DNA from: Endozoicomonas sp. 4G
GTDB lineage: Bacteria > Pseudomonadota > Gammaproteobacteria > Pseudomonadales > Endozoicomonadaceae
Assembly: GCF_023822025.1 (NCBI RefSeq)
Contig: NZ_CP082909.1
Span: 4,338,501 to 4,402,500 of the forward strand
Reading direction: 5' to 3'
Length of the DNA stretch: 64,000 nucleotides
The position numbers and the translations under genes were made by a program. Positions 47,079 to 57,011 of the stretch are shown here, one piece after another; the stretch's first letter is position 1, and each line of letters begins with the position of its first letter. The notes below the pieces were generated by a model, which saw only the letters and a program-made list of their open reading frames with translations, had not been told where the DNA came from and did not search any database.

Positions 47079-48127
47079 GCAAGCCAAAAAACAACATTAA
47101 CCTGAGCCTGAATAAGGAATACAAAAGCTGGCTGAAAGACCTTAAACAGAAGGTACTGTCCACCCAGCTCAAAGCCGCCATTCAGGTGAACTCAACCTTG
47201 CTGGCTTTTTATTGGGAGCTTGGGGAAGACATTATTCGCCGACAGGCTCAGGCTAATTGGGGCGATGGCTTTCTGAAGCAACTAAGCCATGACTTAATGA
47301 CGGAATTTCCTGAAATCAAAGGATTTTCCCGTCGAAACCTTGAATTTATCCGACAATGGTATCTGTTCTGGAACCAATCTCCGGAAATTGCGAAACAGGC
47401 TGTTTCGCAATTAGTTCAGGTGCCCTGGGGACATAACCTGAAGATAATCAGCAAGTGCCAAACAACGGCTGAAGCTCTGTATTACGTGGGCAAAACCATA
47501 GAACATGGCTGGAGCCGAAACGTCCTCACTCACCAGATTGAAAGTGGACTCTGGCAGCGGAAGGGACAAGCGCCCAACAACTTCAATGCAACACTGCCTG
47601 CCGTCCAGTCCGACCTTGCACAGCAAACCCTGAAAGACCCCTATATGTTTGACTTTCTTGCCTTCACTGATCATTACACAGAGCGAGAGCTGGAGCAGGG
47701 ATTGATTAAGCATATCACTCAGTTTCTACTGGAATTGGGATCAGGTTTTGCCTACATGGGCAAGCAGTTTCATATACAGGTAGGGCAGCAGGATTTTTAT
47801 ATTGACCTCTTATTTTATCATGCACACCTGCATTGCTACGTAGTCATTGAACTGAAAGCGGGTGACTTCAGGCCGGAACACGCAGGCAAACTGAATTTTT
47901 ATATCAAAGCAGTAGATGAACTGGTACGCAGGGAGGGCGATGCGCCGACTATCGGCATTCTGCTGTGTAAGAACAAGGACAAACTCGTGGCGGAATACGC
48001 CCTCAGCGATATTCAAAAGCCTATTGGTGTTTCGGAATACCAACTGACCCAATCACTGCCAGAAAATCTGCAATCGCAACTGCCCAGTATTGAAGAAATT
48101 GAGCAGGGACTGGGGGGTGAGTTGTGA
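47075..48127 (+). CDS. DUF1016/YhcG-family PD-(D/E)XK nuclease 1 (350 aa)
   Basis: The N-terminal DUF1016_N region (STLLAFYWELGEDI, FSRRNLEFIRQWY) is followed by VPWGHN. The C-terminal nuclease-like core FYIDLLFYH...VVIELKAGDF has the D and ExK of PD-(D/E)XK enzymes. Members often sit in type I R-M loci as here, between hsdM and hsdS with 4-bp and 1-bp overlaps, so it is translationally coupled. Its role there is not established. Codons just before the VPWGHN motif form the 27-bp palindrome at 47386-47412. It is a close paralogue of the gene at 55959. Confidence 0.88.
   Translation: MSKPKNNINLSLNKEYKSWLKDLKQKVLSTQLKAAIQVNSTLLAFYWELGEDIIRRQAQANWGDGFLKQLSHDLMTEFPEIKGFSRRNLEFIRQWYLFWNQSPEIAKQAVSQLVQVPWGHNLKIISKCQTTAEALYYVGKTIEHGWSRNVLTHQIESGLWQRKGQAPNNFNATLPAVQSDLAQQTLKDPYMFDFLAFTDHYTERELEQGLIKHITQFLLELGSGFAYMGKQFHIQVGQQDFYIDLLFYHAHLHCYVVIELKAGDFRPEHAGKLNFYIKAVDELVRREGDAPTIGILLCKNKDKLVAEYALSDIQKPIGVSEYQLTQSLPENLQSQLPSIEEIEQGLGGEL
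47386..47412. repeat. 27-bp palindrome A, inside DUF1016 gene 1
   Basis: Arms AATTGCGAAACAG (47386-47398) and CTGTTTCGCAATT (47400-47412), perfect, with a single G centre. It encodes E-I-A-K-Q-A-V-S-Q-L. Confidence 0.95.
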
Positions 48128-49446
48128 TGGGTGGAAACAGCCTTGAGCGCAAAAAATATGCGGCTTATGCGGAATATAAGGATTCTGGGGTTGAATGGTT
48201 GGGTTCAATCCCTGCACACTGGGAAGTTACTCGATTGAAGCACATGGCTCAGATTAAAAATGGGCAAGACTACAAAGCCGTGGAAACTAGCGAAGGATAT
48301 CCGGTTTTAGGGTCAGGCGGGCAATTTACCTACGCAACCAAGTTTCTGTACAACAAAGAATCTGTATTGCTTGGCAGGAAGGGTACCATTGATAAACCGC
48401 TCTATATCAATGAACCCTTTTGGACTGTGGATACGATGTACTACACGGAAATCAATAAAGATGTTCCGGCAAAGTACCTGCACTATCTTGCTCTGTCAAT
48501 TCAGTTCAACCGCTACTCTACTAACACTGCTCTTCCAAGCATGACACAGGAGCACCTTGGAAATTATTCGTTTGGTGTGCCACCCAAAAGAAATGAACGA
48601 GAGCATATTCAAAACTTCCTCGACCACGAAACCGCCAAAATCGACACCCTGATCGAAGAGCAGCAATCCCTGATCCGGCTGTTGAAAGAAAAACGACAGG
48701 CGGTGATCAGTCATGCCGTCACCAAGGGGCTGAACCCTGATGCACCGATGAAGGATTCCGGTGTGGAGTGGCTTGGGGAAGTGCCGGAGCATTGGACACA
48801 GACTGAAGTTCGTTATATCACCCGCCAGATGGGGGGCGGTACACCAAGTAAAGATCGATTAGATTTTTGGAATGGCAGCATACCATGGGTGTCACCCAAG
48901 GATATGAAGGTTGATTATATTTCTGATTCACGAGATAAAATTACCACTCAAGCCATTGAAGAGTCCTCAACAAAGCTCATACCCGTTGGAAGCGTGTTGA
49001 TTGTGGTGCGAGGTATGATTCTGGTTCATTCTGTTCCTGTTGCCCTGACCCAAGAACCAGTAACTGTAAATCAGGACATGAAAGCCTTAATTCCAATCAA
49101 AGGGATTGATGGTGAATTCCTCCTTTTTTTCATGAAAGGGCTGAAGGATTTCATTTTGGATTTGGTTGAAGAATCTGCTCATGGAACAAAGTGTTTGAGA
49201 ACTGAAGTCTTTGAGCGAATGAAAATTGCCATTCCTGATTTTGAAGAGCAAATAGATATTGTTCAAAAACTAAAGACGAAGTTAAAGGTTGTTGACTCTC
49301 TGATTAACGATGCTCAAAAAGGTATAGAGCTATTCCAAGAACGCCGCACCGCCCTAATCTCCGCCGCCGTCACCGGCAAAATCGACGTCCGTGACTGGCA
49401 ACCAGAAGCACAACAACAAGAACAACCCGCAGAGGCCACCGTATGA
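48127..49446 (+). CDS. hsdS: Type I specificity subunit HsdS (439 aa)
   Basis: DNA-recognition subunit with two target-recognition domains. Each follows the repeated entry motif DSGVEWLG-(S/E)-(I/V)-P-x-HW: TRD1 from about residue 20 and TRD2 from about 215. The conserved coiled spacer is DHETAKIDTLIEEQQSLIRLLKEKRQAVISHAVTKG. It ends with a second helical repeat (ALISAAVTGKIDVRDW). The ATG at 48127 overlaps the previous stop (TGATG). TRD sequences define an unknown bipartite target. Confidence 0.94.
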   Translation: MGGNSLERKKYAAYAEYKDSGVEWLGSIPAHWEVTRLKHMAQIKNGQDYKAVETSEGYPVLGSGGQFTYATKFLYNKESVLLGRKGTIDKPLYINEPFWTVDTMYYTEINKDVPAKYLHYLALSIQFNRYSTNTALPSMTQEHLGNYSFGVPPKRNEREHIQNFLDHETAKIDTLIEEQQSLIRLLKEKRQAVISHAVTKGLNPDAPMKDSGVEWLGEVPEHWTQTEVRYITRQMGGGTPSKDRLDFWNGSIPWVSPKDMKVDYISDSRDKITTQAIEESSTKLIPVGSVLIVVRGMILVHSVPVALTQEPVTVNQDMKALIPIKGIDGEFLLFFMKGLKDFILDLVEESAHGTKCLRTEVFERMKIAIPDFEEQIDIVQKLKTKLKVVDSLINDAQKGIELFQERRTALISAAVTGKIDVRDWQPEAQQQEQPAEATV

Positions 49447-55496: not shown

Positions 55497-55958
55497 ATGC
55501 GAATTCCATCCCATTTAATTTATTATTATCGCTTGGACTGCATCATATGTAGAAAGTTCCTATTTTTTTCCTGAATAAAATTAATTAATAAAGTGTTTGT
55601 ACAATAGAGGTAACTCTAATTTATTTATGCATGGGACTCCCTGTCCAACCCCCTTGGCCTCCCCCCCTATCAATCTGTGTCATGAGAGGTGACAACAAAG
55701 TGCTGGTCCTTCAAATAGCCACTACTATCTCCAAACTGCTGGATAAAAGTCGCCTGCGGCAAATCACTACCAACCTGCTTGTATTCTCCATCCATCTTGT
55801 TCAACTCAGCAACAGCTGCTGTAGCCGCCCTAGGAGCCTGACCGAGAATAGCTGATCTACGTGGCAACTGCTCCTGCGTTGCTCTGGTAGCAGAATGCTG
55901 ACATTGAATTCGGGCAATATCTCGACTAAGTTTCAGCGATGCTAAAAGAGGTTCGTGC
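55497..55958. other. Degenerate gap with hsdM-tail remnant
   Basis: AT-rich to about 55640, then denser DNA with short unconvincing frames on both strands. The last bases, about 55932-55961, read V-S-A-M-L-K-E-V-R-A-stop just before the third DUF1016 gene, matching the end of HsdM (VSARIMSLLQEVHS-stop) in the same ATGA overlap position. This suggests a lost second hsdM. Confidence 0.5.
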
Positions 55959-57011
55959 ATGAGCAAACAAAAAAACACCGTCAACCTAAGCTTGGACGGC
56001 GAATATAAAAACTGGCTGAAAACCTTGAAACAGAAGGTGCTGTCTACCCAGCTTAAAGCCGCTGTTCAGGTGAATTCGACTTTACTGGCTTTTTACTGGG
56101 AACTGGGGGAAGACATTGTTCGTCGACAGGCTCAGGCTAACTGGGGTGAAGGCTTCCTGAAACAACTCAGTAAGGACTTAATGTCGGATTTCCCTGAAAT
56201 GAAGGGGTTTTCTCGTCGAAATCTTGAGTTAATCCGGCAATGGTACACGTTCTGGTCTGATGATGGGGCAATTGCGCAACAGCCTGTTGCACAATTAACT
56301 CAAATTCCTTGGGGGCATAACCAACTCATCATCAACAAATGCAAAAGCAAACAGGAAGCCCTGTATTACGTACAGAATACTATCAAGCACGGTTGGAGCC
56401 GAAGCGTACTCACTCACCAGATAGAAAGCGGCCTCTGGCAGCGAGAAGGACAAGCCGTCAGTAACTTTAGTGCCACCCTGCCAGCCGTTCAATCTGACAT
56501 GGCGCAACAAACCCTGAAAGACCCTTATGTATTTGATTTCCTCGCTCTGACCCAAAACTACAACGAGCGTGAGCTTGAGAAAGGTTTGACTGAGCATATC
56601 ACCCAGTTTTTGCTGGAATTAGGGGCTGGATTTTCTTATATGGGCAAGCAATTTCATATACAGGTGGGACAACGGGATTTTTTCATCGACCTGCTGTTTT
56701 ACCATGTCCGGTTGCATTGTTATGTGGTGGTTGAGCTGAAGACGGTAGATTTTGAACCGGAACACGCAGGCAAACTGAATTTTTATATCAGAGCCGTGGA
56801 CGAACAACTGCGCAAAGAGGGCGATACGCCCACTATTGGCATTCTGCTGTGCAAGAACAAAGACAAACTCGTGGCAGAGTACTCTCTCAGTGATATGCAA
56901 AAGCCTATTGGCGTTTCGGAATACCAGCTCACTCAATCATTGCCGGAAAACCTGCAATCGCAATTACCCAGCGTGGAAGACATTGAGCAGGAACTGGGAG
57001 GTGGAAAGTGA
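55959..57011 (+). CDS. DUF1016/YhcG-family PD-(D/E)XK nuclease 3 (350 aa)
   Basis: A close paralogue of gene 1 along its whole length (same 350 residues, FSRRNLELIRQWY, IPWGHN, FFIDLLFYH...VVVELKTVDF, ending near LPSVEDIEQELGG). The ExK motif is present; the residue after it is T-V instead of A-G. The 27-bp palindrome at 56270-56296 occupies the homologous codons. It has no complete hsd genes attached; only an HsdM tail trace precedes it. Convergent with livK. Probably the residue of a duplicated or second R-M locus. Confidence 0.87.
   Translation: MSKQKNTVNLSLDGEYKNWLKTLKQKVLSTQLKAAVQVNSTLLAFYWELGEDIVRRQAQANWGEGFLKQLSKDLMSDFPEMKGFSRRNLELIRQWYTFWSDDGAIAQQPVAQLTQIPWGHNQLIINKCKSKQEALYYVQNTIKHGWSRSVLTHQIESGLWQREGQAVSNFSATLPAVQSDMAQQTLKDPYVFDFLALTQNYNERELEKGLTEHITQFLLELGAGFSYMGKQFHIQVGQRDFFIDLLFYHVRLHCYVVVELKTVDFEPEHAGKLNFYIRAVDEQLRKEGDTPTIGILLCKNKDKLVAEYSLSDMQKPIGVSEYQLTQSLPENLQSQLPSVEDIEQELGGGK
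56270..56296. repeat. 27-bp palindrome E, inside DUF1016 gene 3
   Basis: Arms AATTGCGCAACAG (56270-56282) and CTGTTGCACAATT (56284-56296), one mismatch, C centre. It encodes A-I-A-Q-Q-P-V-A-Q-L. Confidence 0.93.

What the first reader, a model, noticed from the sequence alone, without database searches (positions are those of the whole stretch)
47386..56296. Five same-size palindromes tied to DUF1016 genes, co-varying inside coding sequence
Sites at 47386, 49739, 50501, 50542 and 56270 are each 27 bp: 13-bp arms and one central base, outer ATTG...CAAT, none or one mismatch. Three lie in the three DUF1016 genes at the same aligned codons and phase, just before PWGHN/SWSH. Arm interiors differ (GCGAAACAG, GTCTCTACA, GCGCAACAG), but both arms change together, which protein-level selection alone does not explain. 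Two more lie in the gap before hsdR; D would read I-V-Q-T-L-S-A-Q in the coding phase. I infer a palindromic element carried in frame by this nuclease family. It may be the site its own protein binds or cuts, a self-regulating operator, an RNA hairpin, or a mobile cassette like the Rickettsia palindromic elements.
Basis: partly seen in the sequence, partly recalled or inferred. Interest (0 to 1): 0.92.

Follow-up and report, generated by a model that had tools for sequence, protein, structure and literature searches.

The report
Nuclease gene carrying its own target
Genes for the DUF1016 (YhcG) nuclease, found in many bacteria and phages, carry inside their coding sequence a 27-base mirror-image DNA site whose letters change in step with a few amino acids of the same protein, so each protein likely recognises its own gene, an arrangement that would give a long-uncharacterised nuclease family, present in E. 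coli K-12, a readable target.

Summary
A 27-bp palindrome (13+1+13, outer AATT-like boxes, variable inner arms), its centre base at codon position 1, lies inside 207 of 212 non-redundant DUF1016/YhcG genes from many phyla and phages, against 21% after synonymous shuffling and 26 and 30 of 212 in the other two codon phases. Pairing stops at ±13. G·U-type mismatches are not favoured, so this is a DNA palindrome rather than an RNA hairpin. The inner bases co-vary with six residues of the same protein in a chemically sensible way (for example Arg83 with G at -7 in 100 of 102 genes). The rule follows the palindrome where it has moved along the gene. In fresh genes it held for four couplings tested within clade; a fifth is confounded with clade and a sixth failed. 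It switches between natural E. coli alleles. The N-domain model resembles ParB/Noc DNA-binding domains, the C-domain NucS/EndoMS. Best reading: the protein binds its own gene as a dimer. What binding does (self-limiting operator, or self-cleavage driving cassette exchange) is inferred, not shown.

The parts
47075..48127 (+). DUF1016 (YhcG) gene a, 350 aa: DUF1016_N (PF17761) + YhcG_C PDDEXK nuclease (PF06250)
47386..47412 (+). in-gene palindrome A (GCGAAACAG inner arm, 13/13); gene a has R83, E86, F87, L114, R139, N140 (gene b numbering), and the code gives all six of its bases (G, C, A, A, C, A); gene a is in the training set
49443..50489 (+). DUF1016 (YhcG) gene b, 348 aa; reference for the residue numbering
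49739..49765 (+). in-gene palindrome B (GTCTCTACA, 12/13), encodes about residues 99-108; four of the five readable pairs fit the code (86 with pair 8 does not); gene b is in the training set
49686..49724 (+). codons of helix 82-94; residues 83, 86, 87 co-vary with palindrome pairs 7, 8, 5 from the centre: predicted recognition helix
49782..49784 (+). codon of residue 114, which co-varies with pair 4
49857..49883 (+). codons of helix 139-147; residues 139 and 140 (and more weakly 144) co-vary with pairs 3 and 2: predicted second contact
49986..50420 (+). YhcG_C PDDEXK nuclease domain of gene b (residues 182-326); model resembles NucS/EndoMS
50501..50527 (+). palindrome C, begins 12 bp past the stop of gene b; 7 of 8 inner bases as in palindrome B
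50542..50568 (+). palindrome D (GTGCAGACA, 13/13) in the gap before hsdR; read by hand against the table it fits at best three of six pairs of any of the five DUF1016 genes of this genome
55959..57011 (+). DUF1016 (YhcG) gene c, 350 aa
56270..56296 (+). in-gene palindrome E (GCGCAACAG, 12/13, pair 8 mismatched); gene c has R83, E86, L87, Q114, R139, S140, and the code gives all five readable bases; gene c is in the training set
44844..47078 (+). hsdM (N6 methylase of a type I restriction-modification system), neighbour
48124..49446 (+). hsdS (type I specificity subunit), neighbour
50621..53893 (+). hsdR (type I restriction subunit), neighbour downstream of palindromes C and D

Best explanation
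The 27-bp palindromes are predicted to be the binding sites of the DUF1016 (YhcG) protein itself: each gene of this nuclease family, with few exceptions, carries in frame, in or near the part that codes for its likely DNA-reading domain, a site whose inner bases co-vary with six residues of that same protein. Shown by calculation: the site, its fixed 27-bp size and phase, DNA-level pairing, co-variation that follows the site and not the peptide, and joint turnover of the site with the surrounding coding segment. Inferred: that a homodimer with a ParB/Noc-like fold binds the two half-sites, with residues 83, 86 and 87 of one helix, residue 114, and residues 139 and 140 of another helix contacting base pairs 8 to 2 from the centre. 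Inferred more weakly: that the bound site acts as a built-in operator which keeps the nuclease low wherever the gene lands and whatever promoter it meets, and that extra copies beside the gene widen this control. Placing the site inside the segment that encodes its reader would keep the two linked when cassettes are exchanged by recombination. The confidence given is for the self-recognition; for the operator role it is about 0.4.
Confidence: 0.8

Rival explanations
1. Self-cleavage driver: the nuclease does not just bind but cuts palindromes it recognises, in sister copies or in its own gene, and repair of the cut by copying from related genes replaces palindrome and reader together, so the gene family spreads and diversifies as a self-addressed selfish or exclusion element.
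For: Turnover is local to the site: pairs with differing arms have 33% local amino acid divergence at 1.8% background (n=9), against 5.6% at 2.5% for pairs with the same arms (n=30); in independent pairs the effect is largest with the marker at the palindrome. A loose catalytic motif is present in 210 of 212 genes. Some E. coli rearrangements meet at palindrome edges: a gene-less gltD-nanQ allele with one palindrome (at least 80% of the junction query found in 944 of 5426 genomes) and truncations at palindromes.
Against: Near-perfect sites and catalytic motifs coexist in nearly every gene, so cutting cannot be constitutive. Some E. coli breakpoints are ordinary (IS1 in L309; a deletion not at palindrome edges in L299). 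Exchange by plain recombination plus selection for new specificity would give the same tract; breakpoints are enriched near the site but spread along the gene.
Confidence: 0.35
2. DNA hairpin or cruciform, or mutational upkeep: only self-complementarity matters; the palindrome is recognised as a folded structure or is kept symmetric by template switching.
For: Arms vary widely (82 distinct inner 8-mers in 93 genes); tandem copies in one gene differ at pairs 7 to 9 yet stay mostly paired; pairing is weaker at pair 1 (70%), as for a three-base loop. The C-domain resembles NucS/EndoMS, and Kosinski et al. 2005 likened it to Holliday junction resolvases (passages).
Against: Specific residues track specific bases across the family and in held-out genes, which folding alone does not need. 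Outer boxes are conserved in sequence.
Confidence: 0.08
3. RNA hairpin in the mRNA (attenuator, RNase III site or translational operator).
For: Inside a transcribed gene, in the same codon phase.
Against: G-U is no commoner than A-C among mismatches (51 against 62) and is avoided where synonymous codons would allow it (0.01 against 0.33 expected at pair 11; 0.00 against 0.20 at pair 8). Extragenic copies exist on either side of the gene. The residue-base rule fits DNA.
Confidence: 0.03
4. Mobile palindromic repeat (REP/RAYT-like or Rickettsia-palindromic-element-like) that happens to sit in these genes.
For: Tandem in-frame copies (16 of 174 genes have two or more by the criterion, a few of them chance), copies beside genes and in relics, a lone copy in gene-less E. 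coli.
Against: Only 23 box-bearing palindromes in 967 kb outside the frames, 16 within 300 bp of a DUF1016 frame and two in relics; far shorter than Rickettsia elements; no shared inner sequence.
Confidence: 0.04
5. Artefact of conserved amino acids or codon use.
For: Two large clades share partly similar peptides (QQxV, QTLS).
Against: Synonymous shuffles, other codon phases and arm swaps largely destroy it; peptides differ widely while pairing stays.
Confidence: 0.01

Closest known systems
ParB-parS and Noc-NBS (chromosome segregation and nucleoid occlusion)
   Same: Dimeric helix-turn-helix proteins reading palindromes through a recognition helix plus two further helices, with Arg-G and Gln-A specificity contacts (PMC7383237, passages); the DUF1016 N-domain model matches them best. 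In B. subtilis one site, parS-359, lies within the parB gene (PMC4442127, passage).
   Different: parS and NBS are consensus sequences that can be present in many genomic copies, and ParB/Noc are CTP switches (abstracts); here nearly every family member has its own site inside its own gene, the site differs from gene to gene with its reader, and the partner domain is a PDDEXK nuclease.
I-TevI homing endonuclease of phage T4
   Different: GIY-YIG enzyme (recalled) in an intron, operator at a promoter, one described case in that review; no family-wide site with co-evolving residues.
YhcG/DUF1016 family (PF17761 + PF06250, COG4804)
   Same: The genes are full members; PD-(D/E)XK fold as predicted by Kosinski et al. 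2005 (PMC1189080, passages).
   Different: No target or palindrome is described for the family in the passages seen; the N-domain had no confident fold there.
PADLOC candidate defence gene PDC-S02
   Same: Strong matches of two window genes and of E. coli yhcG.
   Different: PADLOC gives no mechanism; nothing here tests phage defence.
Rickettsia palindromic elements
   Same: Palindromes carried in frame inside protein genes.
   Different: ~100-150 nt selfish elements in intergenic regions, RNAs and coding sequences (PMC4316617, passage); here 27 bp, one gene family, co-variation with the encoded protein.

Membership tests
DUF1016/YhcG (PF17761 + PF06250) | DUF1016_N followed by YhcG_C above the curated cut-offs | tested here: met
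   133.6-150.7 bits (cut-off 32.8) and 166.5-228.5 bits (cut-off 32.5) in the three window genes
DUF1016/YhcG (PF17761 + PF06250) | PDDEXK catalytic motif (D then E-x-K) | tested here: met
   loose pattern found in 210 of 212 genes at <80% identity
DUF1016/YhcG (PF17761 + PF06250) | nuclease activity | not testable with these tools
   no assay
ParB/Noc-type DNA-binding proteins | ParB/KorB-like DNA-binding domain fold | tested here: inconclusive
ParB/Noc-type DNA-binding proteins | binds a palindrome as a dimer through defined residues | tested here: inconclusive
   palindrome and residue-base co-variation found; binding itself not tested
ParB/Noc-type DNA-binding proteins | N-terminal CTP-binding domain | not tested
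   residues 10-53 are one long helix in the model; no motif search was made
homing endonuclease | gene inserted in, and so interrupting, its own target; target intact only where the gene is absent | tested here: not met
   sites lie uninterrupted inside nearly every gene; gene-less E. coli also keep one palindrome
REP/RAYT or dispersed palindromic repeats | many copies dispersed through the genome | tested here: not met
   two family-like patterns in the own genome found only sites in or beside DUF1016 genes or in relics plus one weak match; 23 in 967 kb outside frames in the fetched loci; whole genomes were not scanned for every possible arm
Rickettsia palindromic element | ~100-150 nt element | tested here: not met
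   pairing ends at pair 13, total 27 bp
structured RNA element | stem kept through G-U as well as Watson-Crick pairs | tested here: not met
   G-U 51, A-C 62, other 150 mismatched pairs at pairs 2 to 13 in 207 genes

The most novel reading that the evidence does not exclude
DUF1016 proteins are self-addressed nucleases: each gene encodes both an address (the 27-bp palindrome) and its reader within one exchangeable cassette, and the enzyme seeks out and cuts or silences every DNA molecule that bears that address, that is, its own kin, giving bacteria and phages a one-gene system of kin exclusion whose addresses turn over by self-provoked gene conversion.
Probability: 0.3. Interest if true: 0.97.

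Novelty: categorically new. Interest (0 to 1): 0.93.

Why it matters
YhcG is still annotated only as a DUF1016 domain protein in E. coli K-12, and DUF1016_N is common: matches were found in 59 of 398, 99 of 247 and 42 of 194 genomes sampled from three phyla, and in 15 of 249 of a fourth. A target written inside the gene makes the family testable at once: the protein, its predicted site and natural specificity-switch alleles are all in hand. In the searches made here nothing similar was found for a whole protein family that carries its own recognition site in frame and changes both together; it also offers a natural residue-base code for a large set of likely palindrome-reading nucleases. Single precedents (parS-359 in parB, the I-TevI operator) suggest that the design is workable.

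Tried and rejected
RNA hairpin: rejected on the G-U test. Dispersed mobile palindrome: disfavoured by rarity outside the genes. Target-site-duplication reading of the AATT boxes: considered and dropped, because boxes such as ATTT...AAAT are inverted and not direct (listings). Pure cruciform/hairpin model: my working idea after the E. coli tandem copies (note); demoted when specific residues were found to track specific bases. Intraprotein contact between the palindrome-encoded peptide and residues 83-140 was the main worry about the co-variation; rejected because in 57 genes the coupling follows the displaced palindrome and not the usual peptide (weakest for residue 114). Recombination hot spot at the palindrome: breakpoints are enriched near it but spread; kept only as a rival. 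Catalytic decay tracking palindrome decay: not testable, only 2 of 212 genes lack the motif. The coupling of 86 with pair 8 failed in held-out genes and is not relied on. The site and later was chosen as the best-paired one, which inflates pairing at pairs 2 to 9 but not the drop at pair 14. Rows dropped before counts: genes not covering the family profile end to end, genes with N, redundant genes at 80% or 60%; one of 207 genes (site 30 nt before W110) fell in none of the three position classes, 31 of 77 full genes were dropped as too close to training or to each other. A few displaced 'sites' (for example L243, L283, L337) look like chance AT-rich palindromes and were left in. The extragenic list was picked by hand; 15 of 16 could be tested (L077 has no gene with a site), and either orientation or arm was allowed to match. 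Residue numbers printed are one too low (profile trimming); the corrected numbers are those. Novelty rests on the ten searches and 115 of an open-access library, seen as listings, plus passages of ten papers. The passages of the other three papers that hold both 'yhcG' and 'palindrom' concern unrelated things. The passages of PMC8357415 did not state where parS-359 lies; PMC4442127 did.

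
Full report
1. The observation. The five palindromes are present at the stated coordinates, each 13+1+13 with none or one mismatch. In the whole window only seven 27-mers reach 11 of 13 pairs and five are these. The genes at 47075-48127, 49443-50489 and 55959-57011 are DUF1016_N plus YhcG_C proteins, two of them inside an hsdM-hsdS-hsdR cluster. 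The window lies in a 6.0-Mb one-contig genome with five PF06250 genes, one of them with a stop codon in its N-part. All five have an in-gene palindrome at the matching place, one of them weak at the outer boxes. Patterns for two site types in that genome found only sites in or beside DUF1016 genes, sites in DUF1016_N relics, and one further match with three mismatches (with the relics).

2. It is family-wide. 80 loci from a scan of species genomes, loci from searches of five genome sets (with fetched regions), E. coli loci and 60 viral loci gave 327 full-length genes. 320 carry a site (at least 9 of 13 pairs, 6 of 8 inner pairs, centre at codon position 1). At <80% identity it is 207 of 212; the other two phases give 26 and 30; synonymous codon shuffles give 221 of 1060. 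With a stricter rule 157 of 174 cellular genes have one, 16 of them two to five by that rule (a few of the extra ones, AT-rich, look like chance), and 3 and 5 genes in the other phases. All 54 full-length viral genes give their best palindrome in phase 0, though the weakest (for example L337) may be chance. At least 12 of the 17 genes that miss the strict rule show a decayed site at the usual place. A fresh set of 80 loci gave 44 of 46 new genes with a site (8 and 7 in the other phases).

3. Shape. In 152 genes pairing is 80-97% from ±2 to ±13 and falls to the shuffled level at ±14 and beyond. Sites were picked by pairing, which inflates the inner figures but not the drop. Outer boxes A[AT][AT]T are conserved in sequence; the inner arms are not: 82 different inner 8-mers in 93 genes at <60% identity, while swapped arms pair 31-49% at ±3 to ±8 against 89-97% observed. 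Among close relatives (868 pairs, not independent) both sides change together and stay complementary in 1018 pair-columns, both change without complementarity in 79, and one side alone changes in 1130; flanking pseudo-pairs give 69, 1034 and 8158. G·U is not preferred among mismatches (51 against 62 A·C and 150 others, 207 genes), and at positions where synonymous codons would make G·U common it is nearly absent. The selected object is therefore a DNA palindrome.

4. Profile co-variation between 314 protein columns and the palindrome pairs (320 genes, effective number 157), leaving out columns coded within 18 nt of the site, put six residues on top (z 13.3 to 6.8): 83, 139, 140, 87, 86 and 114; residues 155, 60 and 144 follow below z 5 (numbers corrected). 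Residues 83, 86, 87 lie in helix 82-94 of the model and 139, 140 at the start of helix 139-147. The pairings are chemically sensible: R83 with G(-7) 100/102; E86 with C(-8) 15/16, W86 with T 22/22; R87 with C(-5) 29/34, N87 with A 27/29, Q87 with A 9/9; R114 with C(-4) 32/38; R139 with C(-3) 85/92, V139 with A 31/42; R140 with C(-2) 89/91, N140 with A 39/52 (a C on the written strand means a G opposite). Window gene a fits all six pairs, gene c all five that are paired, gene b four of five (training genes, so not independent).

5. It is not a peptide contact. The palindrome lies 18 nt before the codon of W110 in 134 genes and elsewhere in the others, from 210 nt upstream to 210 nt downstream. 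A rule learned on the 134 predicts 59 genes with a site at least five codons away: 83-±7 36/47 (permuted 21.7), 87-±5 40/49 (25.2), 139-±3 41/50 (20.4), 140-±2 46/52 (24.6), 86-±8 30/51 (19.7), 114-±4 29/47 (22.9), p<=0.001 each. In 57 displaced genes (cellular, viral and held-out) with nothing palindromic at the usual place the rule follows the displaced palindrome (29/45, 25/47, 35/42, 27/46, 41/47 for 83, 86, 87, 114, 139; within-clade p<=0.001; 140: 46/51, not testable within clade). The usual place itself fits 16/48, 20/48, 19/46, 14/50, 10/49 on its left arm and 9/48, 12/48, 20/46, 25/50, 10/49 on its right, so the contrast is clear for 83, 87 and 139 and weak for 114.

6. Held-out and evolutionary tests. 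In 46 fresh genes at <80% identity to the training genes and to each other, 44 with a site, the frozen rule gave 31/38, 33/39, 27/36 and 36/40 for 83, 87, 114 and 139 (within-clade permutation 18.5, 21.9, 14.9, 21.2; p=0.0005 each). 140-±2 gave 30/36 but is tied to clade. 86-±8 failed (24/39, p=0.46). In the 17 of them with a site off the usual place: 10/15, 6/16, 11/12, 13/17, 14/15, 14/15 for 83, 86, 87, 114, 139, 140; within clade only 114 (p=0.001) and 139 (p=0.0045) are significant. In close pairs (at least 80% identity, greedy independent set) base ±7 changed in 12 of 18 pairs when residue 83 changed and 2 of 44 when it did not; ±5 in 6 of 12 against 0 of 45 for residue 87; ±4 in 4 of 13 against 0 of 43 for 114; ±8 in 4 of 13 against 1 of 43 for 86. 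139 and 140 hardly vary at this range and give no support (1 of 5 against 1 of 45, over all pairs 1 of 16 against 34 of 243; 0 of 7 against 1 of 41).

7. Site and reader turn over together. Pairs with the same inner arms are locally nearly as similar as elsewhere (5.6% against 2.5% amino acid divergence, n=30). Pairs with different arms are 33% diverged within 105 nt of the site at 1.8% background (n=9). The same holds at larger distances, and in greedy independent pairs the local excess is 0.22 (25 pairs, different arms) against 0.03 (41 pairs, same arms). With the marker moved along the gene, the contrast in independent pairs is greatest at the palindrome (0.17), about 0.1 from -60 to +120, and small and irregular from about +270 on; over all pairs it is as large at +90 as at the site. 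The E. coli alleles L296 and L300 differ by 1% in the 120 nt left of a point 80 nt before the site and by 42% in the 120 nt right of it. They carry K83/R86 with first palindrome CGCCAGACA and R83/W86 with GTGCAGACA, as the rule says; their further copies do not all fit.

8. E. coli. K-12 yhcG has three in-frame palindromes 39 nt apart, one centred 28 bp past its stop and one centred 28 bp past gltD. At least 80% of a 1401-bp yhcG query is found in 3310 of 5426 genomes. A gltD-nanQ junction with one palindrome and no yhcG, read in L303, L305 and L306, matches over at least 80% in 944 genomes. In some strains yhcG is cut off at the edge of the third palindrome and continues into other DNA found in 722 genomes; in one (L308) the third palindrome stands at the place of the first. 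One allele lost two of three palindromes by a 78-nt in-frame deletion whose ends are not palindrome edges (L299), and another is cut by an IS1 element (L309). These fit, but do not prove, breaks at palindromes.

9. Copies outside the genes. 23 distinct box-bearing palindromes lie in 967 kb outside DUF1016 reading frames (E. coli and window apart). 16 are within 300 bp of a DUF1016 frame, most of these centred 15-70 bp past its end or 10-40 bp before it, and two lie in relics. Three lie farther from a Legionella-type gene (L077), and a few (L080, which is among the 16, L326, L341) look like chance AT-rich repeats. Of 15 checked, 11 share at least 6 of 8 inner bases with the nearest in-gene site (14.6% for random genes; either orientation was allowed); the rule fits 9/15, 6/15, 12/15, 8/15, 12/15 and 12/15 for 83, 86, 87, 114, 139, 140. 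Site C (7 of 8) is such a case; site D is not.

11. What it likely does. Shown by calculation: a near-universal in-gene DNA palindrome and its co-variation with the same protein. Inferred: dimeric binding to its own gene. More weakly inferred: a built-in operator. Because near-perfect sites and catalytic motifs coexist in nearly all genes, cutting cannot be constant, which favours control by binding; but turnover around the site and E. coli junctions keep self-cleavage open. PADLOC lists the family as PDC-S02, a candidate defence gene; nothing here tests defence.

12. Prior knowledge. YhcG was assigned to the PD-(D/E)XK superfamily with likeness to Holliday junction resolvases and an N-domain of no confident fold (PMC1189080, passages). 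In ten searches (listings) and passages of ten papers nothing links this family to a palindrome or target. [quoted passage not shown]

Noticed in passing
window 53963-55465 (-): 500-aa reading frame between hsdR and the third DUF1016 gene with no Pfam match.
   Followed up: no
own genome G000:C1:3128072-3128224 and 4586272-4586421: DUF1016_N relics, one with three stops in 51 codons, that still keep a palindrome (one mismatch to a 23-mer family pattern in one, an 8-bp perfect core in the other).
   Followed up: partly
L302:1628-2429 and L308: In many E. coli (BL21 among those listed) yhcG ends at a palindrome edge and a ~470-bp segment with a 101-aa frame annotated 'transposase' follows; that segment is found in 722 of 5426 genomes.
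   Followed up: partly
L303:2943-3009: Gene-less gltD-nanQ junction with one perfect palindrome; at least 80% of this junction is found in 944 of 5426 E. coli genomes.
   Followed up: partly
L173:2645 and 10983: In K-12 the whole gltF-yhcG segment is bracketed by two family palindromes, as if it were a unit exchanged between them.
   Followed up: partly
L020: Elusimicrobia gene with four in-frame palindromes with different arms at 24-39 nt spacing.
   Followed up: no
L077:3069, 4220, 5415, 5475: Legionella-type contig with four palindromes outside a DUF1016 gene in which no own site was called.
   Followed up: no
   Followed up: no
E. coli K-12 yhcG 5' region: PMC7967276 (passages) reports a divergent RNA, G0-10703, that overlaps the 5' region of the yhcG mRNA by 128 bp and may be antisense to it; another possible layer of control.
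   Followed up: no
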